In this document: positions 24,019 to 62,806 of the stretch, in pieces
Position numbering within the stretch: the first letter of the stretch is position 1
How the letters are laid out: each line of letters begins with the position of its first letter
Source of the DNA: a virus
Length of the DNA: 63,905 nucleotides
Reading direction: 5' to 3' (one strand)
Virus record (IMG/VR): IMGVR_UViG_3300023180_000052
Span: 1-63,905 of that record
Made by a program: the position numbers and the translations under genes
The notes under the pieces: generated by a model
Seen by the model: the letters and a program-made list of their open reading frames with translations, nothing else
The model's database searches: none
Told to the model about the DNA's origin: nothing

Positions 24019-27000
24019 ATGAGTTTTTCCTCTTTAGCTATTTCAGCGAGTGCGAGGGCAGGAAAGCAGTCAGAAAAGAACGCAGATATTATCGAGTTCG
24101 TGGAAGCCCCTTGGGGCTTGAAGATGAAGCTATTTCCTGTTCAGCGAGTGATCTTAAAAGTTCACTACGGGCTTGAATTAGATGATACCAAGACCTTTGA
24201 AATATCTGATTGGCGAAGGCAGAACGTAGAAGTACATACTGAAAAATCTTATCTCAAGAAACTTTATGACGAAGGTCGGTGCAACGTAGGTGAGGTAATC
24301 CCTGGCAAACAACGTAGGGAAATGATCTTGTCAATCGGTAGACGTTCGGGGAAATGCGTCACAGGAGACACTCTTGTCACTACAGATAGAGGACTCGTCA
24401 GAATAGATTCTTTAGGTGATGTGAATGGGGCTGAGTTTCAGCCTCTTTCTGTGTCCGTTACTCAAGAGGGAGGTCGAGTTTCAAGGTCTGCTTATTTCTA
24501 TAATGGTGGTGTTCGTCAGACGAAGTACTTTAGAACCAAGTCGGGATATGACCTTGAGGGAACAGGCAACCATCGAGTGAAAGTCCTTACTCCCGAATGT
24601 GAGATCAAGTGGAAGTTTCTCCAAGATATTTCTGAAGGAGATATGGTTGGTATCAACAGGAGCAATAACCTATTTCCTTATAACTACTTATGTCTCAGCA
24701 AGTATAAAGAGGGACTCACTGACCAAGAACATCTCCCTAACTACTTAGACGAGAAATGGGGTCAGCTTCTAGGTATTTTAGTGGGTGACGGCTTATGGAC
24801 AGAACATAGATGCGTTAAAGTTTCTGTGGGGGAAAGTGGCTTTGACAACTACCTAGTTAACTTCTTTAAGAGTTTGTTTAAAAGAGTCTCTTACTACCCT
24901 GACTTGAGAACCGAAAATGCAGGGTCTGTAGTAGCAAATGGTTCATATAACCGACTTTTCTTAGACCGACTAGGTTGGGTTATAGATGTCACTTCTAGCA
25001 CGAAAGAAATACCTCATTCAATCAAGGCTTCTCCTGCTTTAGTTCAGATGGCATTTCTGAGAGGGTTATTTGAGACAGATGGCTGTGTTTCAGGGCCGAA
25101 GATAGCTTTCAGCACAGTGTCGTCAGAGTTGGCTCGTCAAGTTCAAGTGATGTTGTTAAACTTAGGGATTACTTCGAGCCGATCTGAGAGAGTGCGTTCT
25201 AAAAAGAACCACTCAAATGAGTTCGTTGTTTCTATTAAAGGCTCAAGGTCTAAGAGAACTTTTGCACAAAAGATCGGGTTTATTTCTGAGAGGAAAAAGA
25301 AGCTACTTCAAGAGCTAGTTTCGACCCTCACATATCGGGAGTCGAGAGAGGGCGTTCCGTTCTTCCTAGACCTCTTGAAGAAAGAGGGTTTGAACCTTTA
25401 CTCTTATGATAAGAACACCATTCCTTATTGGAAGCTCAAGGAAATCCTTCCTCAGCTTAGGGGTGAGATCAGACAGAAATGTGAAACGCTAATAGACGCT
25501 GACTACTACTTTGACCCTGTAGTTGAAGTGAGGGATTCTGAGAATCGGGTGTATGACTTGAATGTGCCTGATGGTTCGAGCTTCTTGGCGAATGGCTTCA
25601 CTAACCACAACACGACTATTTCTGCGTGTATTGCGGCTTATGAGACGTACAAACTCATCAAGAAACAAGACCCTCAGAAATACTACGGACTTCCTGCGAG
25701 CAATAACATTCAGATCATTTCGGTGGCGACAGATAAAGACCAAGCAGGGTTGCTCTATCAAGAAGTGTCGGGTCACTATCGCAACTGTTCTTTCTTCGGT
25801 CCATACACAGCGAATAATACTCTGAGCTATGCTCGATTTCAGACCCCTGCCGATGTTGAAAAGTACGGTAGGTACATTGAGAATTCGAGTGCGAAAGCAA
25901 CGCTCAAAGTCACCTTCAGATCATGTGTCGCTAAGGGTCTTCGTGGTGCAGGTAATATATGCGTTATTCTTGACGAGGTTGCTCACTTTACAGAGTCGGG
26001 TCAATCGGGTGCTGAGGAAGTGTATAACGCTGTTGTGCCTTCGACCTCAGCATATTCACCGAAAGACCCCGACAACCCTACTGTTCCTATTGGAGAAGTA
26101 GAGGGTCGTGTTATTCTCATTTCTTCGCCACTAGGTAAACAGGGTCTGTTCTATAATCTATTTCAGATCGGTATGCGAGGAGGTAAAGCGAGCGAGAATA
26201 TCCTTGCCGTTCAAGCTCCTACTTGGGAAGTAAACCCCACCGTCCCTGCTGAGGAATTCGAGAAGCATTATCTTAAAAATGCGGCTGTCTTCTTTACGGA
26301 GTATGGTGGCGAGTTTACAGATCGTACTAGGGGTTGGATTGAAAAGTCTGAGGACTTGTTTGCCTGCGTTGATGTCGGTCTTAGAGCAAAACAGAAAGCT
26401 CCTGCGAGGAAACCTCATTTCATGGGGATTGACTTGGGTCTTGTAGGTGACGGCACAGCGATAGCAATCGGGCATCTTGAGGAAGATAAGATTGTTGTGG
26501 ACTTGGTGACACAGATCAAAGCAGGTGAGGGAGAGTATGCTGAAAAAGATCGCTTAGACTTTGATGATGTAGCTGATTGGATTCTTGAAATGACCAAGAA
26601 GTTCTATGTGGTTGAGGGTATCTTTGACCAATGGGCAGGTATCCCCTTAGAGCAAGCGTTGTCGAAGCGTGGTTTAGGTCAGATGAAATCGGTGCAGATG
26701 ACGAAGCAGTTGACCTCTCAGATTTTCCAAAACTTTAAGGACATGATGTGGGACGAAAGGCTTGGTTTATATGACCGACCTAACCCTGAAGAAGATGGAC
26801 ATGAGCCTTACATACAAGAGCTTTTAGAGCTTCAAGCGAAGGTTCAGAGTAAACACCTCATTACTGTAGAAGCACCACAAGTACAGGGCAAACATGACGA
26901 TATGTCAGACGCATTAACTCGTATGATTTGGATAGCTTCTCAGCAGATAGGGAAGCAGAGGTATTTCGCAGGAGGTTCGGGTAGATCATCAATGGGCAAC

Positions 27001-27138
27001 TATTCTAGTGGGAAAGGCTTTGCAGGAGGCACAAGACTTAGAGGAGGCTCAGACCCTCGTAGAATTGCTCCCCGAACGACAAACCGATCTGACAAACACA
27101 GCATAAGAAATCGAATCTTAGGAAATAAAAAGAGGTAA
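24019..27138 (+). CDS. terL: Large terminase subunit interrupted by an intein
   Basis: A 1039-residue precursor. Residues 1-112 and 532-1039 make a 620-residue terminase that pumps DNA into the prohead and cuts it. Splicing restores Walker A as GRRSGK-TT. Walker B is VILDEVAHF (about 649-657). The nuclease acids are in MGIDLG (about 803), GIFDQWAG (about 870) and HDDMSDAL (about 960), an RNase H-type nuclease. Residues 113-531 are an intein with homing endonuclease domain, listed separately. The C-terminus is Gly/Arg-rich. The frame is intact throughout, so excision at protein level is expected to give an active motor. Confidence 0.93.
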   Translation: MSFSSLAISASARAGKQSEKNADIIEFVEAPWGLKMKLFPVQRVILKVHYGLELDDTKTFEISDWRRQNVEVHTEKSYLKKLYDEGRCNVGEVIPGKQRREMILSIGRRSGKCVTGDTLVTTDRGLVRIDSLGDVNGAEFQPLSVSVTQEGGRVSRSAYFYNGGVRQTKYFRTKSGYDLEGTGNHRVKVLTPECEIKWKFLQDISEGDMVGINRSNNLFPYNYLCLSKYKEGLTDQEHLPNYLDEKWGQLLGILVGDGLWTEHRCVKVSVGESGFDNYLVNFFKSLFKRVSYYPDLRTENAGSVVANGSYNRLFLDRLGWVIDVTSSTKEIPHSIKASPALVQMAFLRGLFETDGCVSGPKIAFSTVSSELARQVQVMLLNLGITSSRSERVRSKKNHSNEFVVSIKGSRSKRTFAQKIGFISERKKKLLQELVSTLTYRESREGVPFFLDLLKKEGLNLYSYDKNTIPYWKLKEILPQLRGEIRQKCETLIDADYYFDPVVEVRDSENRVYDLNVPDGSSFLANGFTNHNTTISACIAAYETYKLIKKQDPQKYYGLPASNNIQIISVATDKDQAGLLYQEVSGHYRNCSFFGPYTANNTLSYARFQTPADVEKYGRYIENSSAKATLKVTFRSCVAKGLRGAGNICVILDEVAHFTESGQSGAEEVYNAVVPSTSAYSPKDPDNPTVPIGEVEGRVILISSPLGKQGLFYNLFQIGMRGGKASENILAVQAPTWEVNPTVPAEEFEKHYLKNAAVFFTEYGGEFTDRTRGWIEKSEDLFACVDVGLRAKQKAPARKPHFMGIDLGLVGDGTAIAIGHLEEDKIVVDLVTQIKAGEGEYAEKDRLDFDDVADWILEMTKKFYVVEGIFDQWAGIPLEQALSKRGLGQMKSVQMTKQLTSQIFQNFKDMMWDERLGLYDRPNPEEDGHEPYIQELLELQAKVQSKHLITVEAPQVQGKHDDMSDALTRMIWIASQQIGKQRYFAGGSGRSSMGNYSSGKGFAGGTRLRGGSDPRRIAPRTTNRSDKHSIRNRILGNKKR
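24355..25611 (+). mobile_element. Intein with LAGLIDADG homing endonuclease in terL
   Basis: A 419-residue intein, residues 113-531 of the precursor. It starts with Cys (CVTGDTLVTTDRG, block A), has block B G-T-G-N-H, and ends with VPDGSSFLANGFTNHN (blocks F/G) before Thr +1. These are the residues for standard class 1 splicing. Two dodecapeptide motifs, LLGILVGDGLW and FLRGLFETDGCV, mark a dimeric-motif LAGLIDADG endonuclease. Insertion within the Walker A P-loop, right after the Lys codon, is a typical conserved target. All key splice residues are present, so it is probably functional. Confidence 0.93.
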
Positions 27139-37128: not shown

Positions 37129-38007
37129 ATGAGTAATACAGTTGATAACGCAGTAAAGCAGAAGATCATTGCTGACTACATCAAGACCCCACAGGGTCGT
37201 AGCAAGCTAGCCGCTTCAATGACACAACCACTTCGTCTTCGTCGTGACTATACGAGTGTTGGTCGTAAGACTTTCCTCGTAGAGCAACTTCCTGATGGTG
37301 CTTTGCCGATCTACGACAAAGACCCTGACGTAACTGCTTTCGTAGTTGGTGAAGAAGGCGAGAACATTCTTGCTATCACCAAGCCACGTCGTGTCATTTT
37401 CCCTCTCTTTGAGATCGCTTCTAACCCTGAGATTCCATTGACTCAGATTAAGGAAAGACGCTTCGATCTTATCGAGAGAGCACAGGATTTGGCTCGTGCT
37501 CAGATTCAGGCGGCAGAGGACGAGCGTGTATTCGCTATCCTCGATGCTGTTGCGACTCAGGGCTTCGACTCAATCGCAGGTCAGACTAACGCTGACATTC
37601 CTGTTATCGCTCCTCTTAACGGTGCTGTTCTCGCTGACGCATACGCTCAGATTGAGCGTCACGATCTTCGTGTAGCTCGTGTCTTTATGAATGCTCGTGA
37701 CTACGCTGACATCCGTAAGTTTGGTCGTGATATTCTTGACATCGAGAGCCAAGCGGCTCTCCTCAAGACAGGTCTTCAGGCTACCCTTTGGGGTGCTCAG
37801 ATTATCACTAGCCGTCTCGTTCCTGTTGGAACTGTTTACGTCTGCTGTGAGCCTGAGATGTTCGGTCGTATTCCTGTTCGTACCGAGCTTACCGTTCTCT
37901 CTGCTGACGATCCAAAGGCTCGTACAATTGGATTCAGCGTATTTGAGAATTTGGGTATTGGAGCCTACAACCCTAAGGGTCTAGCTCGCCTTACCGTTAC
38001 TCGCTAA
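37129..38007 (+). CDS. Major capsid protein, HK97 fold
   Basis: A 292-residue protein. The E-loop region (FLVEQLPDGALPIYDKD), spine helix (LIERAQDLARAQIQAAEDERVFAILDAV), A-domain (HDLRVARVFMNARDYADIRKFG; TGLQATLWGAQIITSRLVPVGTVYV) and the closing FSVFENLGIGAYNPKGLA follow the HK97-type pattern of large myophages. No obvious N-terminal delta domain precedes it. SD AAAGGAG lies before the start and a strong terminator follows the gene, as expected for the most abundant virion protein. Confidence 0.85.
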   Translation: MSNTVDNAVKQKIIADYIKTPQGRSKLAASMTQPLRLRRDYTSVGRKTFLVEQLPDGALPIYDKDPDVTAFVVGEEGENILAITKPRRVIFPLFEIASNPEIPLTQIKERRFDLIERAQDLARAQIQAAEDERVFAILDAVATQGFDSIAGQTNADIPVIAPLNGAVLADAYAQIERHDLRVARVFMNARDYADIRKFGRDILDIESQAALLKTGLQATLWGAQIITSRLVPVGTVYVCCEPEMFGRIPVRTELTVLSADDPKARTIGFSVFENLGIGAYNPKGLARLTVTR

Positions 38008-38193: not shown

Positions 38194-38523
38194 ATGAACG
38201 CTTTTGAACGCATATATGAAGGTATCGGGCTTGCCTTAGCAAAGGTAGGATATTTCCTCCTTACTCTTGTGTGCCTGTATCTTTGTGTCGGGTCAGCTTG
38301 CATCTTAGGATTCATTGTAGGGGGTATGCTTGGCTACTTTAGTTTTGACGACTTTGTAGGGTGGGTCTTATGGTATGTGTTCCCCTTACCTCTTGGGTGG
38401 GGGATTTTCGTAGGTGTTTTGTACGCCCTTATCTGTGGGTTTATTGCGTTGTTTGGGGTGACATACGAACTGCTAACTAGAAGAGAACTTAAAGGTGTCC
38501 TATATCACATGGAGTCACTATGA
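38194..38523 (+). CDS. Small multi-pass membrane protein
   Basis: A 109-residue protein with about three hydrophobic helices (about 15-45, 53-68, 72-93) and short loops. A basic tail ends the protein. It overlaps the homing endonuclease by ATGA. It might be a holin or an envelope-modifying protein; nothing distinguishes these. The masked SD suggests expression must be tightly timed, which fits a toxic membrane protein. Confidence 0.6.
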   Translation: MNAFERIYEGIGLALAKVGYFLLTLVCLYLCVGSACILGFIVGGMLGYFSFDDFVGWVLWYVFPLPLGWGIFVGVLYALICGFIALFGVTYELLTRRELKGVLYHMESL

Positions 38524-40487: not shown

Positions 40488-40919
40488 TTAAGTCAGAAGC
40501 TCTAAGGCTCTTTCGAGGTTTTTCATATTAAACCCGTAATCTTGGTATTTCTTATGTACTCGTTCTAGGTATTTGAGTGAGGGCGTGTTCATTTCCTCAC
40601 TATCTACATAGTAAACTTTAGCTCTAACGAATCCCCCCTCGTCTGTAAGTATGTCCATTTCAGATACTTTAGACTTGTTTATTGGCGAAGGTAGCTCTTT
40701 AGAGTCTACGGTATAAAGAACACCCTCTACATAGTCGTTGTACTTGCTAGGGGAAATAGAACAGAACCCTTTACCTGTTTCTTTATCCTTACCTGCAAAG
40801 ACGAGTCTGAACCCTTTTAGGGTTGCGAACTTGTAGAACTGTGCAGAGGGGTACTCTGTTGTCATTCTAAACTCTTCTAGGTTTAGTCCATATGCAAAGT
40901 AAAAGGTAGGGGATTTCAT
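40488..40919 (-). CDS. Gamma-glutamylcyclotransferase-like (AIG2) protein
   Basis: A 143-residue protein. ATG at 40919 lies 8 bases after AAGGA; a longer frame to 41003 lacks an SD. YFAYGLNLEEFRM matches the YFAYGSN glutamyl-binding motif with Ser changed to Leu. VEGVLYTVD and VRAKVYYVDSEE are the usual later strands. The region normally holding the catalytic Glu (LDxxEG) reads differently, so cyclotransferase activity is doubtful. It may bind glutamyl groups only. Minus strand, convergent with the barrel gene. Confidence 0.7.
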   Translation of the reverse strand: MKSPTFYFAYGLNLEEFRMTTEYPSAQFYKFATLKGFRLVFAGKDKETGKGFCSISPSKYNDYVEGVLYTVDSKELPSPINKSKVSEMDILTDEGGFVRAKVYYVDSEEMNTPSLKYLERVHKKYQDYGFNMKNLERALELLT

Positions 40920-44770: not shown

Positions 44771-47700
44771 ATGGCAAAGCACATAGACAAAGAAGCAGGG
44801 TTGGTAAAGCCACCACCTGCACTCTTCAGATTAGTGACACAGATCGCTCAAGGTGTATTAGCTGACCATGTTACTCGTAGTATATACAGCACCACAGTCG
44901 GTATGGAAGAAATAGAATATCTTGAAGAAGTAAACGAAGAAATACTTAAAGTTCTGAACAACTACGAAAAAGCTGACATGGAGGATTTCTTTGAGCTTGT
45001 TGATAGCTTTCGTATCGAATACCACGATGTTCTCAGAGTCATTCTTAACGACTATGAGGATTATCCAGAAGACGTTCAAATTAAAGAAGATGCAAAGTTC
45101 GGGTTGAAGCTTGTCGAGGAAATTACAAGATTCCACGACATAGAATTCAAACCTTACTCTAATAGAGACTTAGAGAAGCTCAGAGAGAGTAAGAGAGCAG
45201 TACAACTACTTGTTGCCGCTCTTTCTTTTGTCACGAAGCAACTAAGACTCAAGAAAGAAAGAGAACCTTATGAAGATAAGGACAGCTTTGAACGAGCTTT
45301 ATCTCAGCTTCCTAGAGAGTATCTCATAAGCAAGTACACCCACTTAAATTTAGGCGTTAAAGCAGAAGTTACTTACAATGACTTTAACCACCCAATAAAG
45401 CTAACTTTTAAGTTCCAAAACTCTAGGGTTTTGGGCAGTCATAGTATGGTTGGGAATTACCACCATATTCTGATTACTATGCCCGACAAACGGAAATATA
45501 GTCAGCAAGATTTAGATGCTGTTGAAGATACTGTTAGACATGAGTTAGTTCATGCTGTGCAAGAGGAAATAGCCACACGCAACTTATTAGCTGAGAGTGG
45601 TGGGTTGCCTTTCTCTAAGAGAGATCGAAGATTCAGACAGCATGACCAAGCAGGCGAGCGAAGAGTCCGTAATGAATTAAGGCAGTTAGGCTTAGACCCC
45701 AATTTAGCTAACTTTCATGCCCTTGATGATGTGGAATTCTACACAAGACTCTTAGACGAAGTTGAGGGCTTTAAGGACGAACACCCGAACCCCGACAATC
45801 GAACTATTTCTAGGTATATTAATAATAGACCTTTCTTTAGATCGCTCAAACACTTTAAGAAGAAGTATTGGGACAAGGCTGTGGGTCTGTTTTATCAAGC
45901 TGTAAATGAGGGTTCAGAAGCTCGTGTAGCGAGACAACTAATACAAGACCTTGCAGGCGTACAGACATGGGTAAGTAAGACTCGTCAAGATCAAATAGAG
46001 AACGACACTTCGACACCCGAACCTAGCAGGGCTGACTACCAAGACGGGAAGCCTCAGAGAGACAGGGTTTTACCCTTACCTAGTGGACACCCTAAAGGCA
46101 GAGATGAGGTAAGGGCAGGGCCACCTGTTTCTAACACTCCGTCTGATAGTGCAGGTTCATCTCTTAATCATAATACTCCGATGAACCCTAATGCTATTCC
46201 GAACCAACCCGATGGGAAACCACTTCATCAGCGACCTCGTTCTTCAGGGCTTCCTGGAGATGAATACGGACACCCTTACATAGACGCTAAGAATACAACA
46301 GGGTTGTCGAGGAGAACCTTCAAAACTGCTTTTGAAATGGACTTATCAGAGGGTGATGACCTTGATTATTTCCTTGAAGACGATGGCGACTTTTCTAACC
46401 GAGAAGGTGTGGGTCGAGCTAAGATTAATTGGAGAAGACCAAAGGTTCGACAACGAAAGTGGCAAGGTCAGCTCAAGAGAGAATACAAAGTTAATCGGGC
46501 TAGAACTAAGCGTAAAAACCTTAGTAAAAAGATTAATATGCGTAAGAGGTACTACGAAAGAAATAAGCACTTGATTCTGAGGTATCAAAAACGCAGGAGG
46601 GAGCACCCTGAACAGCATAAACGGTTTAAGGGAGGTCCTTCTACTCAAACTCAAAAAAATAACAGAAGCAAGAGAGCTGAAATGATGAAAGACACCTTGG
46701 CTTTGGTTCAGAATGTGGACATCTTCGATAGAATGGCAGAGGAAATGGAATCGTCAGAAATCATGGCGAAGCCTCGCTATCAAAGTGGACCTGGTTCGAG
46801 AAGTACCCACAAGCAACAGAAAACTAGACGTAAGCGTAAGAAGTTGAGGAACTCGAACTATACGAAATTGCGTAGGGCGAGAAAGAGATATTATCGCAAG
46901 AACAAAGCTAAGATTAAAAAGAGAGTGAAGACTTGGAGAAGAAAACATAAGCAAAGGCTCAAGAGGTATAAGCCTATGGGCAAGAAAGCTTCAATGTTCT
47001 TTGAGTACCCATTTCTTTTAGAGTGTTCTATTGAGGGTATGCCTCTTTGTGTCGAGCGTATTTCACCTTGTACCTCTTTTATAATTCTCAGTCATCAGAA
47101 CGATGAGTCTGATCTTTATGAAATGTCGCTTTACGACTTCTATTGGGAAGCCGAGTGGAATGATGAAGAAGATGAATGGGACTTTGATGACTTTGTAGAG
47201 GAAATAGCTGAAATGAAAAGAATTGCTAAGAATGTTCCGAACGACCCTAAACTGTGGGGGCAAATTATAGAGCTTGCTAAAGGGGAACGTAAGACTCCTG
47301 TAGAAAAAGGTGGGGTTAGCGTTTCTCCTGTTAGAGATGGTGAGGGGTTTCAGAAATACCCAAGTGCCTATGCAAATGGGTGGGCTTCAAAAGCTTATGG
47401 GGACTTAGGTGGTACTTGGTCTAAGCAAGCTAGTCAGCGTGATATTTCCTTGCCTACTTTACAGGTTCTCTTAGCTATTCTGAGAGGAGCACATTGGGCT
47501 CATTGGACAAGCCATTGGCAAGTCAAGGGGCAGAGCTACTATGGAGATCATCTATTACTAGAGAGAATCTATGAGTCTTTGATTGAGGAAATAGATACCC
47601 TCGCAGAGAAGATCGTAGGCACTTACGGTGCGATGGCTGTAGCTCCTGTCGAGCAGGCTCAGATTATGGCGAACACTCTTTTACCTGTAGCTGAGGCACA

Positions 47701-47887
47701 GGCAGAGAATGACCCTATCCGTAGAGCTTTAGTCATTGAAGAAGCGTTGCAGGTTGTCTTTAAGAACATCTATAAATCTCTCAAAGAAATGAACACTCTC
47801 ACTTTAGGTATGGACGACTTTTTGATGTCTATGGCTAATGCTCACGAAACAAATCTATATCTGTTACGACAAAGAACAAGGGGTTAA
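44771..47887 (+). CDS. Fusion of metalloprotease, basic and Dps/ferritin-like domains
   Basis: A 1038-residue protein. Residues about 190-400 contain a zincin signature H257-E-L-V-H261 (TVRHELVHAVQEE). A Pro/Asn-rich linker follows. Two extremely Arg/Lys-rich regions (about 550-625 and 666-740) can bind DNA. YPSAYANGWASKAYGDLGG (about 863) is a motif I recall from phage proteins. Residues about 893-1038 are Dps-like with the full ferroxidase set H915, H927, D942, E946, at E. coli Dps spacing. It might condense or protect DNA and oxidise iron, with proteolysis at the start. Domain identities are strong, function is inference. Confidence 0.8.
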   Translation: MAKHIDKEAGLVKPPPALFRLVTQIAQGVLADHVTRSIYSTTVGMEEIEYLEEVNEEILKVLNNYEKADMEDFFELVDSFRIEYHDVLRVILNDYEDYPEDVQIKEDAKFGLKLVEEITRFHDIEFKPYSNRDLEKLRESKRAVQLLVAALSFVTKQLRLKKEREPYEDKDSFERALSQLPREYLISKYTHLNLGVKAEVTYNDFNHPIKLTFKFQNSRVLGSHSMVGNYHHILITMPDKRKYSQQDLDAVEDTVRHELVHAVQEEIATRNLLAESGGLPFSKRDRRFRQHDQAGERRVRNELRQLGLDPNLANFHALDDVEFYTRLLDEVEGFKDEHPNPDNRTISRYINNRPFFRSLKHFKKKYWDKAVGLFYQAVNEGSEARVARQLIQDLAGVQTWVSKTRQDQIENDTSTPEPSRADYQDGKPQRDRVLPLPSGHPKGRDEVRAGPPVSNTPSDSAGSSLNHNTPMNPNAIPNQPDGKPLHQRPRSSGLPGDEYGHPYIDAKNTTGLSRRTFKTAFEMDLSEGDDLDYFLEDDGDFSNREGVGRAKINWRRPKVRQRKWQGQLKREYKVNRARTKRKNLSKKINMRKRYYERNKHLILRYQKRRREHPEQHKRFKGGPSTQTQKNNRSKRAEMMKDTLALVQNVDIFDRMAEEMESSEIMAKPRYQSGPGSRSTHKQQKTRRKRKKLRNSNYTKLRRARKRYYRKNKAKIKKRVKTWRRKHKQRLKRYKPMGKKASMFFEYPFLLECSIEGMPLCVERISPCTSFIILSHQNDESDLYEMSLYDFYWEAEWNDEEDEWDFDDFVEEIAEMKRIAKNVPNDPKLWGQIIELAKGERKTPVEKGGVSVSPVRDGEGFQKYPSAYANGWASKAYGDLGGTWSKQASQRDISLPTLQVLLAILRGAHWAHWTSHWQVKGQSYYGDHLLLERIYESLIEEIDTLAEKIVGTYGAMAVAPVEQAQIMANTLLPVAEAQAENDPIRRALVIEEALQVVFKNIYKSLKEMNTLTLGMDDFLMSMANAHETNLYLLRQRTRG

Positions 47888-50429: not shown

Positions 50430-52814
50430 ATGAGAAGAAAACACGCAGACTTTTACAGGGAAGTTTCCCCTCCCGACTCACTTTCTTCTCTTTCAAATGG
50501 CTCACCCGTCTCTGTTTCTGAGAACCCTGACGGCACTAGCTCGCACAGTGCTTTGCCAAATGGCGAGGTGGCTCGAAATATAGGCAGACCCTCACCTGAC
50601 TCTCCGAATCTGAAATATAGAAATCTTGATCGAGCAGAAGCCAATGGGAGAACACCTGCTGAGGGTCAAGACTTCGGCTATGTGCATGATAGTGGTAGTG
50701 GTTCAGCGAGAGTAATCCCTTATGATAGTGGTTTCACTAACAACGGGTCTGCGATAAGAAAAGCAGGTCTGACGGGTACTTTAGAGCAGTCGCTGAGATC
50801 ACTAGAAGAAAGATTAGAGAGTCGCTATCAAGGTCTTGTTTTGATGACGAGCCTCTTATCGGGTGGGGACGAGTACGAGCCTCCCATTGTCAGGATTATG
50901 ACAGTTCAGATTCCCGCTGATAGCCGAAAGCAAGGCTTGGGGTCAGAGGTCATGTTTCAGATTATTTCTTGGGCTGATGGTCATGGGGTTATGCTATCTC
51001 TTTCTCCCTCGACAGACTTTGGTGCGAGTTCTGTTTCTCGTTTGACTAAGTTTTACAGGAGGTTTGGGTTCAAGCCCAACAAGGGCAGAAACAAAGACTT
51101 CAGAACAAGAGACACCATGCTCAGAAACCCTTCTCTGAGAAAGAGTTCTGCCACTTACAAGATGCCTCGTAAGTGGGATAGAGAGCATTGTGAGTCTAAA
51201 CCCTGTGACGAGATGGGTTTCTCTGAGAAGGCTTCTTGTCGTCCATATGTTGACTGTTATGGGGATAAAACAGGGTCTAACAGACAAGATATGATCTCTA
51301 AGGGTAAGCAAGCGTCTTCTAAAGCTAAACTTAGGTATTTAGGTTCAGAAAGTGGAGTGATGCCTTACGACTTCTACTTTATGCGAGTAGAGAATGACTA
51401 TTACTATCACTACACATATAGAGATCGTGCTGAGGAAATAATTGAAGACGGCTTTTTAAGACCTAACTTCTATAAAGATCAGCCTGGTGCTGTTGGAGCT
51501 TTTGCTATTTCGGGTTCTTATGGGCAAGAGGTCACAAGTCTCCAAGTCAGTGGTTCTAGGAAAGACCACATGGACAAAATCGTAGCTCTTAAATTCAAGA
51601 CTCGGACAGAGCCGAAGTATGGATTTCCTGAAGAAGTGAAATGGGATAAACCTGTGAAGCTCATTAAGCCTGAGATTGTAAGTGTCTCGGAAGTCATTTC
51701 TGATTTAAGGAAGAATGAGGACTTGGGGGAGTACTTCAAAGTTTTTTACGACTTTAAGGAAGCGATTGAGATCAAAAAGAAATATGGTCAATCTTCAAGG
51801 GTTGCGTCACGCTATTTGGAGTCAGCGAAGCGAGATGATTCTAAACTGAAAAACACAGGGCATGGGGGCTTAGATACTTGGTTTGCAGGGCATGGTGGTG
51901 GTAAACCCGATGAGAGAGCAACTTGGGGTGATTGGATAGCGATCACACCGATAAAACACACGATAAAAAAAGAAGACGGGGAAGATAAGACTTATGACGC
52001 AGGAGACATTGTTGGCCCATGTGCCGTATCTAGTGAACCAAGTTGGAAAAGCGTTACAAACGGAGGAAAGAACCCCCTTAAATGTATGCCTAGAGACAAA
52101 GCCCACGACCTCACGAAAGAGCAGAGGGCTACGTTGGCTCGTAAGAAGAGGCGTGAGGAGAGCAAAGCTAAAGATGGGCAGAAGCCCGTTCACACCCCTA
52201 CTTTTTCTGAAAAGGGCAAAGAGATGATTGAGAAAAAATCTTCCAAGGTGCAACATAAAGTTAAGTTTGATCCTACAGGAAATAACAAGCTAGACATAGC
52301 TCTAGCTCTTGCTCATTCCAAAAAGCAAGGCTTCATTTCTCTTGTGGGGCATGATGTGTATGAAGACATTATTGCAGGTATTTTAGCAGATGCTCATACC
52401 ATGCTTTACACACGAAATTTAGACGTTGGTCGCTATCAGAATATTAGACCTTATAACATTTCTATTTTTCAATGGAAGAAAGACTACGAGCGTTTGAATG
52501 TTCAAAAGTCTAGGTACAGAGCAGGCAACGCTCACATATGGGGTGAAGCACCTAAGATTTGGGTAGAAGCTGCTACTTTAGGTGCAGAACTCAAAGTAGA
52601 AATGGAAGGGAGTCAACCTTCCATAAAAGGGGAGGTAAAGGTTCATTTCCCCATCACATATACGATACTTGAAGATCGAGGAGCTCACCCTTATAGATTA
52701 ATAGAAAGAGAGGGGATAAAGTTTTACAGTACAATTCCAATAGAAATAAATCTTAGAAATAGCGATGCTTTTAATCGTCTTTATTTAAGTTGGTTAGAAG
52801 GTAACTTTGACTGA
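50430..52814 (+). CDS. Multidomain protein: GNAT acetyltransferase and putative ADP-ribosyltransferase-like region
   Basis: A 794-residue protein. Residues about 110-225 match a GNAT acetyltransferase: VRIMTVQIPADSRKQGLGSEVM (acetyl-CoA loop) and LTKFYRRFGFKPN. Next is a Cys-rich stretch (HCESKPCDEMGFSEKASCRPY). Residues about 325-430 begin YYYHYTYRDRAEEIIEDGFLRP, a pattern like the first strand and helix of ART-fold enzymes (DarT, KptA). RVASRYLES follows (about 455), then a domain with GLDTWFAGHGGGKPDERATWGDW, resembling DUF5872. The last 180 residues resemble the two paralogues upstream. GNAT is fairly sure; ART is tentative. Confidence 0.65.
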   Translation: MRRKHADFYREVSPPDSLSSLSNGSPVSVSENPDGTSSHSALPNGEVARNIGRPSPDSPNLKYRNLDRAEANGRTPAEGQDFGYVHDSGSGSARVIPYDSGFTNNGSAIRKAGLTGTLEQSLRSLEERLESRYQGLVLMTSLLSGGDEYEPPIVRIMTVQIPADSRKQGLGSEVMFQIISWADGHGVMLSLSPSTDFGASSVSRLTKFYRRFGFKPNKGRNKDFRTRDTMLRNPSLRKSSATYKMPRKWDREHCESKPCDEMGFSEKASCRPYVDCYGDKTGSNRQDMISKGKQASSKAKLRYLGSESGVMPYDFYFMRVENDYYYHYTYRDRAEEIIEDGFLRPNFYKDQPGAVGAFAISGSYGQEVTSLQVSGSRKDHMDKIVALKFKTRTEPKYGFPEEVKWDKPVKLIKPEIVSVSEVISDLRKNEDLGEYFKVFYDFKEAIEIKKKYGQSSRVASRYLESAKRDDSKLKNTGHGGLDTWFAGHGGGKPDERATWGDWIAITPIKHTIKKEDGEDKTYDAGDIVGPCAVSSEPSWKSVTNGGKNPLKCMPRDKAHDLTKEQRATLARKKRREESKAKDGQKPVHTPTFSEKGKEMIEKKSSKVQHKVKFDPTGNNKLDIALALAHSKKQGFISLVGHDVYEDIIAGILADAHTMLYTRNLDVGRYQNIRPYNISIFQWKKDYERLNVQKSRYRAGNAHIWGEAPKIWVEAATLGAELKVEMEGSQPSIKGEVKVHFPITYTILEDRGAHPYRLIEREGIKFYSTIPIEINLRNSDAFNRLYLSWLEGNFD

Positions 52815-52861
52815 CCCTCATTGGTAATGTGGTTGTGTTCAATCTTAGTAAAGGAAATAAT

Positions 52862-53908
52862 ATGAGACATACGATTGCAGAGTACATTTGGATTGATGGT
52901 GGCAACCCCACCTCTCGTGTTCGTTCAAAAACAAAAGTCCTACCTCACATTTCTGAGGACAGTCTTTCAGGGCGTAGTCTTTTAGAGCAACTTCCCGAAT
53001 GGTCATTTGACGGGTCTTCTACTATGCAGGCAGAGGGTGGTTCTTCAGATTGTATTCTGAAGCCTGTCTTTGTTACGAGTGACCCTATTCGTGGTGGCTT
53101 TGATAATTTTCTTGTTCTCTGCGAGGTTTTCACAAGTGATGGAAAGCCCCACCCTACAAATACGAGAGCGAAGTTGAGAGAGCTTTTAGAAGCTAACTCT
53201 GACTTGGGAGCTTGGATTGGTTTTGAGCAAGAGTACACACTTTTTGAGGGTTCTCGACCTCTAGGTTTTCCCTCAGAAAGACGCTTCCCTCCTGCTCAAG
53301 GGCCATACTACTGTGGCGTAGGTTCTGATGAAGTTTCGGGTAGAGGCATGGTAGAAGATCATCTTAGGAAATGTATTTCTGCTGAGTTGTCTATACAGGG
53401 AGTAAACGCAGAAGTAATGCCAGGTCAATGGGAGTTTCAGATTGGTGGACCTGACATTGACCCTTTGCGAGCAAGTGATGAGCTTTGGGTAGCTCGTTGG
53501 TTGCTTTATCGTATTGGTGAGGATTACAACATTTCTGCGACTCTTGACCCAAAGCCCGTGACGGGAGATTGGAATGGTGCAGGTATGCACACTAATTTCT
53601 CGACTAATAAGACTAGAGCTGAAGGCGGAATGGCAGCTATCGAAAAAGTCATGGACTATCTCGCAGGAAATATTTCCGAGCATTTAGCAGAGTATGGTGA
53701 TGGCTACGAGATCAGACTTACAGGCAAACACGAGACTTGTCGCTACGATGAGTTCAAGTGGGGCGTGTCTGATCGTACAGCGAGCGTCAGAATTCCTGTG
53801 ACAACAGCTCGTGATGGTCATGGCTATTTCGAGGACAGACGACCTAACTCAAACGCAGACCCTTATAGAGTTTCTCTTGCCTTAGTTAAGGCAGTTATTT
53901 CAGCTTAG
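52862..53908 (+). CDS. Glutamine synthetase, type II (eukaryote-like)
   Basis: A 348-residue enzyme making glutamine from glutamate, ammonia and ATP. ATG at 52862 (MRHTIAEYIWIDG) follows AAAGGA. Conserved blocks: LPEWSFDGSST, IGFEQEYTLF (metal Glu), MPGQWEFQIGGPDID, GAGMHTNFST (ATP/ammonia pocket), and YFEDRRPNSNADPY with SDRTASVRIP. All catalytic segments are intact and the length fits GSII. Type II enzymes lack the adenylylation Tyr of type I, so the enzyme would escape that host control. A phage-encoded, complete GS is unusual; it may keep nitrogen flowing into nucleotides during infection. Confidence 0.93.
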   Translation: MRHTIAEYIWIDGGNPTSRVRSKTKVLPHISEDSLSGRSLLEQLPEWSFDGSSTMQAEGGSSDCILKPVFVTSDPIRGGFDNFLVLCEVFTSDGKPHPTNTRAKLRELLEANSDLGAWIGFEQEYTLFEGSRPLGFPSERRFPPAQGPYYCGVGSDEVSGRGMVEDHLRKCISAELSIQGVNAEVMPGQWEFQIGGPDIDPLRASDELWVARWLLYRIGEDYNISATLDPKPVTGDWNGAGMHTNFSTNKTRAEGGMAAIEKVMDYLAGNISEHLAEYGDGYEIRLTGKHETCRYDEFKWGVSDRTASVRIPVTTARDGHGYFEDRRPNSNADPYRVSLALVKAVISA

Positions 53909-53913
53909 TTCTT

Positions 53914-53948
53914 CTATATCCGTCAAGTTTAAGAAATGACGGATATAG
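53914..53948 (+). promoter_or_regulatory. Perfect hairpin touching a Shine-Dalgarno
   Basis: CTATATCCGTCA (53914-53925) and TGACGGATATAG (53937-53948) pair over 12 bases. The SD TAGGAG (53946-53951) for the 53958 start overlaps the right arm. Without a T-run it is unlikely to be a terminator for glutamine synthetase. Confidence 0.55.
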
Positions 53949-53957
53949 GAGTTCAAG

Positions 53958-54164
53958 ATGAAAGAAGATAAAGACCCTCATACAACCACTCAGCCTGTGA
54001 TTCTGATTGGTGTAGATCGTCAAGAAGCCCCTGAGTTTGAAAAGCTTACTGTCATTGTAGAAGATGAAACAGGGCTGAAAGTGACTGAAAGTCATTACAA
54101 TGGTATAGTCTCTGTGGAAATGAGAAATGACCGACTTTTGATTTATGTCTCTAAAAAGGGATAG
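53958..54164 (+). CDS. Small hypothetical beta-rich protein
   Basis: A 68-residue protein (TQPVILIGVDRQEAPEFEK; VSVEMRNDRLLIYVSKKG) with alternating strands. Start at 53958, SD TAGGAG. No family recognised. It lies between glutamine synthetase and a neck/tail gene, and the hairpin above could tune its translation. Confidence 0.6.
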   Translation: MKEDKDPHTTTQPVILIGVDRQEAPEFEKLTVIVEDETGLKVTESHYNGIVSVEMRNDRLLIYVSKKG

Positions 54165-54173
54165 GAGATTCTT

Positions 54174-55286
54174 ATGTTTCAGCACTTAACTTTAGCAGTT
54201 CGAGATAGGGTTATAAAAGAGCTTAGAGACTATTGGTCAGACCACCCTAGATACCCTGATTTTGCTCAGAATATACAGGGGAAATATAGCTTTGATGAGC
54301 GACCTCAGTTTGGCATGGTAGTTCGTACAGGAGGGGCAAACAATGTAGTTTTAAGCCCCGATAACTTCATAGGCACAGTTGAGGGTTATGTCTCTCTCGC
54401 TAAGATACCGAGCAAGCCTTATGGTGGTTCAATCGAGTGGGTCAGAGAAGATGTAAATGGTGCTCCTAAGAATCCTGGCGTTTATGTCTTTTCAGTTTAT
54501 GAGGCTGAGGGTGTAGACCCTGCTACCCGACAGCATGATGTGTATTATCAAAGGTATCGTAGGGCAGTAGAGACTGAGTTGATGTTTACAAGCCCCTCAG
54601 AAATAATGTTAGCAGGCGAGCCGATTGAGGAATCTTTGAGGTTGATTGAAGACCCTTCAGGTCGCAATCTTGGGGCTTCAGAGTTTGCTGTAAATGGGTC
54701 TATGGTTACGCTCGCTGAGGAAGTACCTAGAGGACTCAAACTAAAAGCTCTCTACACCGAGAAGATGGAGCAACAAGGTCCATTCAGAGTCAAACCTGCG
54801 ACTGCATACAGAAATATCATTGAGGGTGTCGTGGTTGTCTTTGGGAGAAGACTTCGAGTAGGTGACGAAATGGCTGTGATTGTAGCAGAAGGTCGGGAGG
54901 AAATAGCTCACGAGTATGGGGGTCGTTGGGACGTAAGTGTGGACATAGACTTAATTACAAGAGATGTTCACTCACAAGCAGATATAGCAGACCAAACAGC
55001 GATATGGTTATGGGCGAACCTTAGACCCAAGCTCGCTAACTTGGGGTTAGATATTTCTGATGTCTCTCTAGGTGGCGAAGCTGAAGAAGTTTATGATGAT
55101 AATGGAGATGATTATTTCTATACGGCAAGTATGAGCTTCTCAATGCAGGTAGATTGGTTTATACATTTCCCGTTAGTTATCCCGATTCAGAGTGCTTTTG
55201 AAAGGGGTATTGTTTTAGAACCTTTAAGTCAACCGATAACAGGGATTGGAAATAGATCGGCTGACTTTATTCAGCGTCTTTTATAG
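54174..55286 (+). CDS. Probable neck or tail structural protein
   Basis: A 370-residue protein, mainly beta with short helices (FGMVVRTGGANNVVLSPDNFIG; YVSLAKIPSKPYGGSIEWV; WDVSVDIDLITRDVHSQADIADQTAIWLW). It precedes the Zn-ribbon and sheath genes, the place where large myophages code neck or tail-terminator proteins. SD GGAG lies 6 bases before the ATG. The specific role is not determinable here. Confidence 0.5.
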   Translation: MFQHLTLAVRDRVIKELRDYWSDHPRYPDFAQNIQGKYSFDERPQFGMVVRTGGANNVVLSPDNFIGTVEGYVSLAKIPSKPYGGSIEWVREDVNGAPKNPGVYVFSVYEAEGVDPATRQHDVYYQRYRRAVETELMFTSPSEIMLAGEPIEESLRLIEDPSGRNLGASEFAVNGSMVTLAEEVPRGLKLKALYTEKMEQQGPFRVKPATAYRNIIEGVVVVFGRRLRVGDEMAVIVAEGREEIAHEYGGRWDVSVDIDLITRDVHSQADIADQTAIWLWANLRPKLANLGLDISDVSLGGEAEEVYDDNGDDYFYTASMSFSMQVDWFIHFPLVIPIQSAFERGIVLEPLSQPITGIGNRSADFIQRLL

Positions 55287-58700: not shown

Positions 58701-60556
58701 ACACGACTGTACTTACAGCGATTAACACTCAGCTTACAGGGATTGCTACAGCAACGATTGAGGGAGCGAACCTCAGAATCACTCCGAACAGCTTCGATGA
58801 TGACAGCTTCATTTCTGTTCTTGATGGTTCAGCAAATGATCTGTTTGCTCTTACACAAGGTGCGTCCGTTACTTCAAGACCTGTTAGTGCAGACGCTCTA
58901 AGTTCTGCTTTCATGCAAGCAGGTGCTTGGGCTTCTGTTAAGTCGTTCTTAACTGACCCAGCTGCGGTAGCAGGCTCTTATAGAGCTGATGCTATTTCCT
59001 ACGTTACTGTTGATGGTGCGAATAGACGCTATGTCAACTTCGAGACTCTCTCAACAGGCACTCAGACTTCAATCGCCTTTACAGGTGGTGACGCTATTAC
59101 AACTGTCTCAACTAATCTTGGTATCAAGGTGAATGACGGGGCTGTTGGTGAGGCTTCTTATCAAGGCTTCTATGTCACCTCTACTCATGCTAGTGGTTCA
59201 GGTACTGCAAACACCTCGACTCTGAATGATGGTACAGGTGCAGACGGTGTTGTCGGTCAGACTTATGTGGATAGCGTAACGGGCTTGACCTTTACTATTC
59301 TCCCTAGAGAGGGTAGTCAGCCTTACCCAACTGGTGCGAACTCTACCCTTACTTTCAAGGTGGGTCGGGTTCTCACAGCGAATGCTAACATTCCTGTCAA
59401 TGCGATTGCAGGCGTTAGTCTGATCGTAGCGAACACAGTAGGTACTGAGGTTGGTGATACAGCACTTGTTGAGACTTTCCGAGCATCTGAAGTAGAGAGA
59501 GAGCCTTCAATCGGAACACCTTATTTCTTAAATGTGACTCGTAAAAAGGCTTCTTTCGCAACGGGCGTATTTAATCGTATTGCTGACGTAGTTGCGGCGT
59601 ATGGACCTATTTCTGTGGACAATCCACTTTCGTTAGGTGCTTATATCGCTTTCCTCAATGGTGCGAGTGTTATTGCTCTCAAGCAAATCTCTCTTGATGA
59701 GGGTCAATCTGAGCCAACTGAAGCTCAGATGGTTGACGCTCTTGTAGAGGTTGAGGGTGAGATCAGTTCGGGTCTTTCACCAAGCGTGATTGTACCTCTC
59801 TTGCCTGCAAGCTCAACGCTTCTTGCAGACATTTCTTTGCATTGCGATGTTCAGTCAAGTCTGAGGTATCGTTCAGAGCGTACTGCGATCTTGGGCTGTC
59901 CTGCTGGGACTTCACCTGAGCAAGCGGCAACTCTTGCAAGAAATGTAGGAAATAGCCGTGTTCGTCTTGTCTACCCTGACATCGTTAGTTTATCAGTAAC
60001 TAACACGAATGGTGTGACTAACAATCTTATTGTTGATGGTCGTTATCTTGCTGTGGCTCTTGCCTGTGCGACAACTTCTTCAACAGTTGATGTGGCTACT
60101 CCTTGGACTAATAGAAACCTTTTAGGCTTCAATGGTCTTTTGAGAACCCTAGACGCAGTAGACGCAAATAAGACTGCTTCAGCAGGTGTGACTATCCTAC
60201 AGCAACAGGGTGCTTTGATTAACATCAGACAGGGCTTGACTACTGACGTTAGCTCAATCCTTGCGAAGACTCCTACTGTGATTCAGATTGCAGACGAGGT
60301 ACACCTCAGAGCGAGAAACCTACTTGCAGGTTATATCGGTCAGAAATACCTCCCAAGCGTTGTAGGTCAAGTAGAGGGTCGTGTGAACATGATGTTCAAG
60401 GACTTAGTGAAGGAGCAGATCATTGATTCTTACACAGGTCTTTCGGTCATTCCTGACCCCGAAGACCCAACGAGCTTGCTTGTTGATGTGTACTACAAGC
60501 CGATCTTCCCACTTCTCTACATTCAGTTCACATTTAATGTGAGAAGCTCGATCTAA
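55763..60556 (+). CDS. Giant tail sheath protein
   Basis: A 1597-residue protein. The N-terminus GGYAPPGVYTETVFE is the classical sheath start. The C-terminal third (SLGAYIAFLNGASVIALKQIS, GVTILQQQGALINIRQGLTTDV, and the ending VDVYYKPIFPLLYIQFTFNVRSSI) is the conserved contractile core. The middle has large insertions: three beta repeats at about 112-158, 301-352 and 467-525 share a V.L..GP..G..V.I.YYFN pattern, and later segments repeat ITLTPG...T...IA..IN. At over twice the length of T4 gp18 (659 residues), the extra domains probably decorate the tail surface. It shares CTAA with the convergent thymidine kinase gene. Confidence 0.88.
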   Translation: MAIRGGYAPPGVYTETVFESPTPQNNFSGRIPLLIGSGTESFAQNGLTVVRGSSATIDQQIVEEDATGRSVLFQNPDGSYSLGDFDGTSNVVRVRQWPIVNGDGTGTTATTASVVTASINGQATVVLSINAKEGLVTLASSPDEGDDVRISYFFNRTDNFVDSEDVSTQVTSEESDLYATFADMAITPTTRTLVATIDGVVHVIDLPIKSVNTTRTEHLGFIVSKINALEIGTLGASTYVDHRGNTNLLLSASGSILIGAGTANPHIGVFEGMTGTARNTVFYTAHNPIVDGTNGGIVTSEVSDVVVKVDGVEVTPISLDPTTGAVTLAVAPPVGAEVTISYYFNSFKDNFDFIPSRDVLSVSRVSLVPEGGGDAARYYEGVSWVLKDDKIYWGTFVDASVGNIQEGLVSFGPNQITTALRDERLFLAECANVTDTSVVPPRTLPNVFKLPHQPTDGTGTATATSNPALVQVRVGTSISDALERSTVAVTRVNPADSTITLSQPVPFGSKVFATFYYNNIQDEFDIAGGGYEVQVASVGGSNVGTYTLSRSGLPLFGATYEGKGSDLSLTAINFPSGSEAQSGVSLSAGTPVEETVTVKFASFEPTPAIFTAPKAAPYSFLETTSDTISVNLDNAGALNVELVNPTGLGNKGLMTYMVSEPLPYTASSDNANLGTVDGDLFLKIDGVEMSIDLSGGNAIANATAALIAAEINTQAKAIGASYTAMTPIGPYTVIAGENDLLTFHYEDNTQNLVPITLTLTPGEYLTADAIATEINAQITIDATFDPATQFGASAVDGRLVFTLKSLLAGDFGYVEFIAQGDPTDDFARVAGIDVGADGGSQTKFGILPIAYSVANDLSAVVGNDASKDRLILRNRTLIGESYFPTTTLGIEVIGGSVLTQLGLEVEEVISPRQAVVEAPSLLLRAGWNAQDAVSGSPSVTFYDGTDTNFPANNVLTLNINGDSYSVTFVGSAQGTSTVLYTTVLTAINTQLTGIATATIEGANLRITPNSFDDDSFISVLDGSANDLFALTQGASVTSRPVSADALSSAFMQAGAWASVKSFLTDPAAVAGSYRADAISYVTVDGANRRYVNFETLSTGTQTSIAFTGGDAITTVSTNLGIKVNDGAVGEASYQGFYVTSTHASGSGTANTSTLNDGTGADGVVGQTYVDSVTGLTFTILPREGSQPYPTGANSTLTFKVGRVLTANANIPVNAIAGVSLIVANTVGTEVGDTALVETFRASEVEREPSIGTPYFLNVTRKKASFATGVFNRIADVVAAYGPISVDNPLSLGAYIAFLNGASVIALKQISLDEGQSEPTEAQMVDALVEVEGEISSGLSPSVIVPLLPASSTLLADISLHCDVQSSLRYRSERTAILGCPAGTSPEQAATLARNVGNSRVRLVYPDIVSLSVTNTNGVTNNLIVDGRYLAVALACATTSSTVDVATPWTNRNLLGFNGLLRTLDAVDANKTASAGVTILQQQGALINIRQGLTTDVSSILAKTPTVIQIADEVHLRARNLLAGYIGQKYLPSVVGQVEGRVNMMFKDLVKEQIIDSYTGLSVIPDPEDPTSLLVDVYYKPIFPLLYIQFTFNVRSSI

Positions 60557-61128
60557 TCCTTACGAACCCAATGGGTTCTGAGATCGAATTCTGAGCGAGT
60601 GACGGGGGCGTAGTGGAAGCCTGCTTCTATTGCGTCCCCGTCTTCATTTCTGCTCCCGTCAGCGTTGACTTTTTGGTTGTGGGTAGCCTTATTTCCACAT
60701 AGAGAAAACGTAGCTATTTCTTCTATGTTATCAGCCCATGCCATCATGTATGTACTGCCCTCAAAGGGATTGCCTTGAAAGTCAGTTCGGAGTCCGTAAG
60801 CATATACAGGGATTTTGAGTTGGTCAGCGATTTCTGTGAAATGTAAGACTTGCTCTTTAGAGAGAAATTGAGCTTCGTCTACGAAGATGACTTGGGGCTT
60901 GCTACTCATGTCAGAAATGATCGCATAAGCGTTGTCAGTCTTGGATAGTGAAATAGCTTTTTGAGTGAAGCCGACACGAGAAGCGACTTGATTGTCTCCA
61001 TCTCTTGATGAGGCGACTTCAGGGACAAAAATCTGAAATGGGATTTTGTATTCAGAGCAGGAGTAGGCTCTCATCAAGAGGTTGGCTGACTTACCTGCAT
61101 TGACTGTAGAATAGGTAAACTTTAACAT
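60553..61128 (-). CDS. tdk: Thymidine kinase
   Basis: A 191-residue TK1-type kinase that salvages thymidine to dTMP. P-loop TVNAGKSANLL (about 8-18), a QVIFVDEAQFLSKEQV Walker B and the catalytic Glu in DEAQF are intact. GLRTDFQGNPFEGS and the C-terminal Tyr loop GFHYAPVTRSEF are present. The zinc ribbon is reduced: LCGNKATHNQK has one Cys where two pairs are usual. SD AGGA lies 7 bases before the ATG. The start overlaps the end of the sigma gene by 7 bases. Confidence 0.9.
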   Translation of the reverse strand: MLKFTYSTVNAGKSANLLMRAYSCSEYKIPFQIFVPEVASSRDGDNQVASRVGFTQKAISLSKTDNAYAIISDMSSKPQVIFVDEAQFLSKEQVLHFTEIADQLKIPVYAYGLRTDFQGNPFEGSTYMMAWADNIEEIATFSLCGNKATHNQKVNADGSRNEDGDAIEAGFHYAPVTRSEFDLRTHWVRKD

Positions 61129-61772
61129 GGATAGTCCTGAGCGTAAGGTTTAAGAGTTTTGCGAATATCCTCTATGTACTTATTTACCTTACGAGTGTCC
61201 ATGCTTCGTCTGCGAGAAATGTGGCTGACTTTATACCCCTCCATGAGATCATCGAAAATGTCAACGAGGTGTTCTTTTAAGCTCTCTCTTGCTTGTTTTA
61301 GGAACAGCACATTTTCAGCATCTGGAGAAGTGCTACATTCAGCTATGATGTAGTCTTCATCTTCAACGCTTGACTCTTTCCCGTAGACCTCTCTCTCCTT
61401 TTTCTTAGACATCTTGTTTATGTAGTTAATCGTCACGCATTTTGACACCATGACAATGTAAGTGCTGAACGCTGACTTGGTTTCATCAAAAGGACACTTC
61501 CCTCTATTTCTGATGAGTATTCCTTTGTAGACTTCTTGGAGTACGTCTTGAGGGTCGCAGTTTTTTTCGAGGCACATATGAGCACAATGCTTCATAAAGA
61601 GCTTCTTCACTTCTTCGTGCTTGAGATTTAGGTTTATTCCTTTTGGTTTTAAGTTGTTTACCTTTAATTTCGTGGTCTTTTTAAAGTTAAATTTAAGTTC
61701 GCAAAGTTCAATCACACCAACTTGCCACTTTTTCAGCACTTTGTTGGGTAAATTCTGATATGAGTACGTCAA
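61122..61772 (-). CDS. Phage sigma-70-like factor
   Basis: A 216-residue protein. TTG at 61772 follows a full SD AAAGGAGGG; a longer frame to 61823 lacks an SD and would collide with the divergent gene. CDPQDVLQEVYKGILIRNRG, FDETKSAFSTYIVMVSKCVTINYINKM match region 2 (-10 recognition and core binding). The C-terminal GYKVSHISRRRSMDTRKVNKYIEDIRKTL fits a region 4 helix-turn-helix. It would redirect host RNA polymerase to phage promoters, probably the TATAATG-type elements seen in this window (inference). Confidence 0.75.
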   Translation of the reverse strand: MTYSYQNLPNKVLKKWQVGVIELCELKFNFKKTTKLKVNNLKPKGINLNLKHEEVKKLFMKHCAHMCLEKNCDPQDVLQEVYKGILIRNRGKCPFDETKSAFSTYIVMVSKCVTINYINKMSKKKEREVYGKESSVEDEDYIIAECSTSPDAENVLFLKQARESLKEHLVDIFDDLMEGYKVSHISRRRSMDTRKVNKYIEDIRKTLKPYAQDYPC

Positions 61773-61822
61773 GACATACCCTCCTTTAGATAATTGAAGA
61801 GTTATTTCATTTATTGCTGACA
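61773..61822. promoter_or_regulatory. Divergent region between the sigma gene and the 61823 gene
   Basis: A 50-base gap between two divergent starts. It carries the sigma SD on the minus strand (61779-61787). AT-rich, no clear -10/-35 seen. May hold both promoters. Confidence 0.3.
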
Positions 61823-62806
61823 ATGAAAGGAAGTCAAGTGGAAGTTTCCAAACTAATAAAGACTCTTGGAGAGTTAGAGAAGAAAGGGGTCTTTAACCCC
61901 ACAAAAATGATCTCAACTCATGGGCTAGAGAAAGTAAGCGAGGCTATAGAATCTTATCTTGTAGGAGTGTCTTATGGGATACCCGAAGACGTTTGTTTGA
62001 GTGTTCTTGAAAAGCTTTCCTCACCCCAAACGAATAACTATTTCTTAGGTGACGAGGAGGTACATAACCTCCTGTTAAAGTACTCAAGAGTGGCTCATGG
62101 TCGAGAGGGTTATCTCTACATGAACGTGAGAGATATTTGCAAGCTCGCTTGCGTAGAAGCCAATCAAACAAATACCTCAGAAATAGCTAAAAACCTAGAG
62201 AGGCAAGGGTATGTTAGCACTTCTGTAGCCGACCCCACGAAATTCACAAGAACAAGGGTGAAGCAGTTTCATTTCGACTTGTCCTGCTTACCTGACCTGT
62301 CTTCTTTATGGTCTTACTTAGGGGAGCTAAAGGACTCTGCGACCTTACCTATCAAGGTTTCAGACTTTCTCGATGGTACTGAGGACAACTATAACTTAAG
62401 GTTTAAAAAAGAGGACTTTGCTCTTGTTGTTCCAAAAGAGTGCCTACTGCATTTCCGAACTTACTTGTGTGACTTTGTAGAGGCTATTTATGAGGAGGAC
62501 TCGTCTTCTTCTTATATGTATTTAGAGAATACAGGGTTTAATCGCTTCCTACTTTCACAAGTGCTTTGTAAGGCATTTCCTAGAGTGAGTCTAAGAGACT
62601 TGGTGGCTCGCTCCTCTAAGAACATACCTCCAAAAGAAGTGACACCTATAGTGGACTATATAAGAGAGAGACTCCGAGCGACTCAGGTAAATCAAGGCAT
62701 CTTTAATGCTAAGTGGAACTTGATTGACTCAAATATTTCGGGGTATGTCTACTTACTTTCTTATATGTACCTAGAGTATTACCTAGAAGAAAATCCGATT
62801 ACATAG
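61823..62806 (+). CDS. Hypothetical protein divergent from sigma
   Basis: A 327-residue soluble protein, mostly helical (VSKLIKTLGELEKKGVF; EIAKNLERQGYVST; RVKQFHFDLSCLPDLSSLWSYL). Start is uncertain: ATG 61823 has no SD, while GTG at 61838 follows AAAGGAAG closely. It may contain a winged-helix region (MNVRDICKLACVEANQTNTSEIAKNL). Possibly a regulator, by placement against the sigma gene. No firm family. Confidence 0.6.
   Translation: MKGSQVEVSKLIKTLGELEKKGVFNPTKMISTHGLEKVSEAIESYLVGVSYGIPEDVCLSVLEKLSSPQTNNYFLGDEEVHNLLLKYSRVAHGREGYLYMNVRDICKLACVEANQTNTSEIAKNLERQGYVSTSVADPTKFTRTRVKQFHFDLSCLPDLSSLWSYLGELKDSATLPIKVSDFLDGTEDNYNLRFKKEDFALVVPKECLLHFRTYLCDFVEAIYEEDSSSSYMYLENTGFNRFLLSQVLCKAFPRVSLRDLVARSSKNIPPKEVTPIVDYIRERLRATQVNQGIFNAKWNLIDSNISGYVYLLSYMYLEYYLEENPIT

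What the first reader, a model, noticed from the sequence alone, without database searches (positions are those of the whole stretch)
52862..53908. Complete type II glutamine synthetase on a phage
All catalytic blocks are intact and the enzyme is of the eukaryote-like type that is not shut off by adenylylation. It sits in a structural-gene region, so it is probably made late and strongly. Phage GS could keep glutamine available for nucleotide and amino-sugar synthesis under nitrogen limitation. A GGCT-like glutamyl protein (40488-40919) is also in this window, though likely inactive.
Basis: partly seen in the sequence, partly recalled or inferred. Interest (0 to 1): 0.7.

Follow-up and report, generated by a model that had tools for sequence, protein, structure and literature searches.

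The report
Phage-carried type II glutamine synthetase
This large tailed phage carries an intact, apparently working copy of the bacterial enzyme that makes glutamine from ammonia; such genes are already reported in phages, so it is a well-preserved further example, with some new detail on how the gene has moved and been lost among related phages.

Summary
Window 52862-53908 (+) encodes a full-length 348-aa glutamine synthetase of the GlnII (type II) family. Its nearest solved relative is Streptomyces coelicolor GlnII (57-61% identity); vertebrate and plant enzymes are about 49%. All 19 active-site positions checked are intact here, in all 66 phage and all 80 bacterial homologues compared. The GSI tail with the adenylylation tyrosine is absent. 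Near relatives show purifying selection (dN/dS 0.03-0.13).

It is an accessory gene. Of 14 records picked by their 91-97% identical capsid protein, 3 carry it and 11, including 312- and 316-kb contigs, do not. Its position and strand differ between relatives, and one relative (L273) keeps only a decayed 3' remnant at the same site. 'Late structural operon' thus fits this phage but is not general. GS-positive phages tested lack PII and almost all lack glutamine amidotransferases, so any glutamine made would feed host enzymes.

Phage glutamine synthetases are already published (moraphages, jumbo phages, viromes): a new member of a known kind. A by-finding is a hairpin, varied in sequence but kept in form, over the ribosome-binding site of the small gene after GS, present also where GS lies elsewhere.

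The parts
52862..53908 (+). Type II (GlnII) glutamine synthetase, 348 aa
   Evidence: NF041605 461 bits; 4bax E 6e-124; all 19 checked catalytic positions intact; model TM 0.92 to 4bax
52847..52861 (+). Shine-Dalgarno-like stretch (AAAGGAAAT) before ATG 52862
   Evidence: sequence; inference only
53911..53951 (+). 15-bp hairpin with 11-nt loop just after the GS stop; its 3' arm holds the ribosome-binding site of the next small ORF
   Evidence: (-22.3 kcal/mol, z -5.3); same place and different sequence in L005, L006, L008, L013, L015, L023, L273
53958..54164 (+). small conserved ORF (68 aa), function unknown, precedes a tail-region gene in relatives with or without GS upstream
50430..52814 (+). 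upstream neighbour, modular 794-aa tail-region protein (phrog_10691, phrog_11975 matches)
54174..55286 (+). downstream conserved phage gene, 370 aa, no family
37129..38007 (+). HK97-fold major capsid protein
   Evidence: NF042927 157.6 bits; phrog_2522
24019..27138 (+). terminase large subunit with intein and LAGLIDADG domain

Best explanation
The gene encodes a catalytically competent GlnII-type glutamine synthetase (ATP + glutamate + NH3 -> glutamine + ADP + Pi), carried as an accessory metabolic gene by a lineage of large or jumbo phages. Shown by sequence: family, intact active site, missing adenylylation segment, purifying selection in near relatives, mobility and loss among relatives. 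Inferred: during infection the phage makes a glutamine synthetase that the host's covalent control of its own GSI cannot reach, keeping glutamine flowing into host-encoded amidotransferases (nucleotides, amino sugars, amino acids) while the phage replicates. In this phage it is probably transcribed with the tail-region genes.
For: Family and fold. D50, E122, E124, E184, E191, N238, H243, R285, E291, R305, R310, E324 and R326 (human D63, E134, E136, E196, E203, N248, H253, R299, E305, R319, R324, E338, R340), with six further checked positions, are invariant in 66 phage and 80 bacterial homologues. dN/dS is 0.03-0.13 in eight informative phage pairs. The gene is on the same strand as the tail-region gene run. 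Phage GS sequences form deep, well-supported clades. At least 146 IMG/VR stretches encode relatives.
Against: No expression or activity data. The gene was not found in most capsid-clade relatives and is decayed in L273, so it is not essential. Its position in a structural block is lineage-specific. The host is unknown, so nitrogen limitation is conjecture. dN/dS for the window's own copy could not be measured (silent sites saturated).
Confidence: 0.8

Rival explanations
1. The enzyme works, but its main benefit is signalling: a raised glutamine to 2-oxoglutarate ratio silences the host's nitrogen-stress (PII/Ntr) response during infection, rather than supplying nitrogen.
For: An isozyme without the adenylylation segment would bypass GSI covalent control (established knowledge of GSI regulation; segment absent). 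GS stands nearly alone: no PII in any tested record and almost no amidotransferase.
Against: Nothing in the sequence favours it over plain glutamine supply; host and its nitrogen regulation unknown.
Confidence: 0.12
2. The protein has drifted to another gamma-glutamyl ligase substrate (for example an amine in place of ammonia) or to a non-catalytic role.
For: Homologous GS-fold enzymes such as gamma-glutamylputrescine synthetase exist (weak NF045547 match). The NF041605 score is below the curated cut-off (461 against 500).
Against: All checked substrate, metal and phosphate positions, including the flap Glu and the Asp for ammonia, match solved GSII enzymes; purifying selection in relatives.
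Confidence: 0.05
3. A captured host gene in passage, with no selected phage function.
For: Accessory, mobile within genomes, not found in many relatives and decayed in L273.
Against: Deep phage-dominated clade (ultrafast bootstrap 100, SH-aLRT 99) and dN/dS well below 1.
Confidence: 0.03

Closest known systems
GlnII glutamine synthetase (Streptomyces coelicolor, PDB 4bax; NCBIfam NF041605)
   Same: Fold, length, every checked active-site residue, 57-61% identity
   Different: Phage-borne; 461 bits against a 500-bit cut-off; short insertions near residues 31-40 and 195-199 relative to 4bax
Glutamine synthetase genes of moraphages (PMC12619734) and of jumbo phages (PMC13037316)
   Same: Phage-encoded glutamine synthetase proposed as an auxiliary nitrogen gene; nine moraphages carry one
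   Different: The passages read do not state the GS type, and whether those sequences are related to this one was not tested. This phage's capsid protein is closest to a 485-kb uncultured phage, then to Tunturi_5 and Bacillus phage G
GSII in 635-735 kb uncultured huge phages (LR756501-LR756503, LR745206)
   Same: GlnII-type gene on a huge phage, 46% identical
   Different: Much more distant in sequence than the window's clade (64-74% identical); not placed in the tree

Membership tests
Type II (GlnII) glutamine synthetase | Beta-grasp N domain plus GS catalytic domain, about 330-370 aa | tested here: met
   348 aa
Type II (GlnII) glutamine synthetase | Metal, glutamate, ATP and ammonia site residues | tested here: met
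   19 of 19 positions
Type II (GlnII) glutamine synthetase | Curated NCBIfam NF041605 naming score of at least 500 bits (not a biological feature) | tested here: inconclusive
   461 bits over the whole profile, below the cut-off; read as divergence, since it is by far the best family and active site and fold agree
Type II (GlnII) glutamine synthetase | No C-terminal adenylylation segment (Tyr397 of GSI) | tested here: met
   chain ends at residue 348; residues 203-344 align to GSI 230-377
Type II (GlnII) glutamine synthetase | Decameric assembly and ammonia-dependent glutamine synthesis | not testable with these tools
   needs purified protein
Phage auxiliary metabolic gene | Lies on a phage genome among phage genes | tested here: met
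   terminase, portal, protease, capsid in the same record
Phage auxiliary metabolic gene | Accessory distribution with a bacterial homologue | tested here: met
Phage auxiliary metabolic gene | Alters host metabolism during infection | not testable with these tools
   no infection data

The most novel reading that the evidence does not exclude
The phage uses a glutamine synthetase free of covalent control to hold the infected cell in a false nitrogen-replete state, overriding the host's GSI adenylylation and PII signalling.
Probability: 0.12. Interest if true: 0.6.

Novelty: new member of a known kind. Interest (0 to 1): 0.3.

Why it matters
It adds a well-preserved, clearly typed (GlnII) case to the list of phage nitrogen genes, shows that such genes have passed between phages and bacteria several times and can be old in phages, and offers closely related phages with and without the gene for a direct test of its value.

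Tried and rejected
Recent eukaryotic origin: rejected, identity to eukaryotic GS is only 49% and the window sits deep among bacterial and phage GlnII (the trees were rooted on the eukaryotic rows). A single phage-wide clade: rejected, at least 5 phage/bacteria label changes are forced by supported branches. L168 and L169, suspected to be mis-binned phage contigs: flanks look bacterial (glutaredoxin/BolA-like and mechanosensitive-channel-like ORFs in L168; a sigma-54-type regulator in L169, judged by eye). Holding the 25 near phage sequences as one clade without them is disfavoured (p-AU 0.015), though that group was named after a tree was seen. The post-GS hairpin as a GS terminator: no T run, and it also precedes the small ORF where GS lies elsewhere. 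Two dN/dS values were set aside: L011/L012 (0.29; almost no changes) and L019/L021 (0.76; L021 reads a different N-terminus).

Full report
Observation. The ORF at 52862-53908 is real, uninterrupted and full length. It matches the GlnII family over its whole length, the Pfam GS domains and solved GSII enzymes, best Streptomyces coelicolor GlnII 4bax. An AlphaFold model built from 35 phage sequences has mean pLDDT 90 and overlays 4bax with TM 0.92. A match of this length and score is not chance.

Active site. I mapped 19 positions from vertebrate GS numbering (roles from general knowledge of human GS structures) on an alignment of 66 phage, 80 bacterial and 3 reference sequences. Every one is identical in every sequence. 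The chain ends before the region of GSI that carries the adenylylated tyrosine. Eight phage pairs show dN/dS of 0.03-0.13, so the protein is maintained in relatives; pairs that involve the window itself are saturated at silent sites.

Kinship. The gene is a bacterial-type GlnII, not a eukaryotic one. In a 149-row tree phage and bacterial GlnII interleave, with at least 5 label changes forced by supported branches. The window falls in a clade of 25 phage sequences and two bacterial ones (100/99 support). The two bacterial sequences lie inside, so either phages gave the gene to bacteria or an unsampled bacterial lineage gave it to phages more than once. No donor can be named. The bacterial sample is the best 80 hits of a capped scan.

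Context and distribution. The window carries terminase (with intein), portal, head protease, capsid and tail-region genes. GS sits between a 794-aa tail-region gene and a small ORF followed by a 370-aa conserved gene; GS also directly precedes the small ORF in L008, L013, L015 and L023. In L005, L006 and L007 GS lies elsewhere, on the strand opposite to these genes, and in G002 and G016 it is 50-80 kb from the 370-aa gene. Among 14 records chosen by their 91-97% identical capsid protein, 3 have GS and 11 do not, including 312-kb and 316-kb contigs; all are classed linear and may be incomplete. L273, a near relative of L008, has at the same site only a remnant of the 3' part with in-frame stops, then the same hairpin and small ORF. 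GS is thus moved and lost among relatives.

What the glutamine could serve. In 20 records (16 with GS) class I amidotransferase was found in one, class II in one and PII in none, while the same searches gave matches in 14, 14 and 13 of 14 control genomes. Phage-encoded glutamine users are therefore rare among these records, some of which are fragments, and the likely users are host enzymes.

Prior work. Nine moraphages carry a GS called an auxiliary metabolic gene (PMC12619734); glnA is listed for jumbo phages (PMC13037316) and for viromes (PMC11944383, PMC12448302). A search for six set phrases such as 'phage glutamine synthetase' found no paper in the held library. None of the passages read reports an assay.

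By-finding. Just after GS lies a 15-bp hairpin whose 3' arm holds the ribosome-binding site of the small ORF. Relatives have a hairpin at the same place with different arm sequences (L005, L006, L008, L013/L023, L015; L273 has the L008 sequence), including those where GS lies elsewhere. It thus belongs to the small ORF; by analogy with ribosome-binding-site hairpins of T4 late genes (from memory) it may block translation on some transcripts. I did not run a covariation count.

Noticed in passing
window 53911-53964 and L005, L006, L008, L013, L015, L023, L273: Hairpin of about 9-19 pairs covering the ribosome-binding site or start of a small tail-region ORF; the arms differ in sequence between phages while the form is kept.
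   Followed up: partly
window 37129-38007; L082-L161: Major capsid protein is 91-98% identical over many contigs (apart from exact copies) while neighbouring genes of the same phages are about 45-80% identical.
   Followed up: no
window 24019-27138: Terminase large subunit interrupted by an intein with a LAGLIDADG domain.
   Followed up: no
window 38520-39431: LAGLIDADG homing endonuclease-like gene shortly after the capsid gene.
   Followed up: no
window 60553-61128 and 61122-61823, minus strand: Thymidine kinase overlapping a weak sigma-70-like gene, both opposite to the tail-region genes.
   Followed up: no
window 44771-47887: 1038-aa protein whose C-terminus matches DUF5856 (sub-threshold), phrog_3636 (DNA binding) and phrog_858 (starvation-inducible regulator).
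   Followed up: no
L273 8117-8261: Decayed 3' remnant of GS with in-frame stops beside a DNA-methyltransferase-like ORF.
   Followed up: partly
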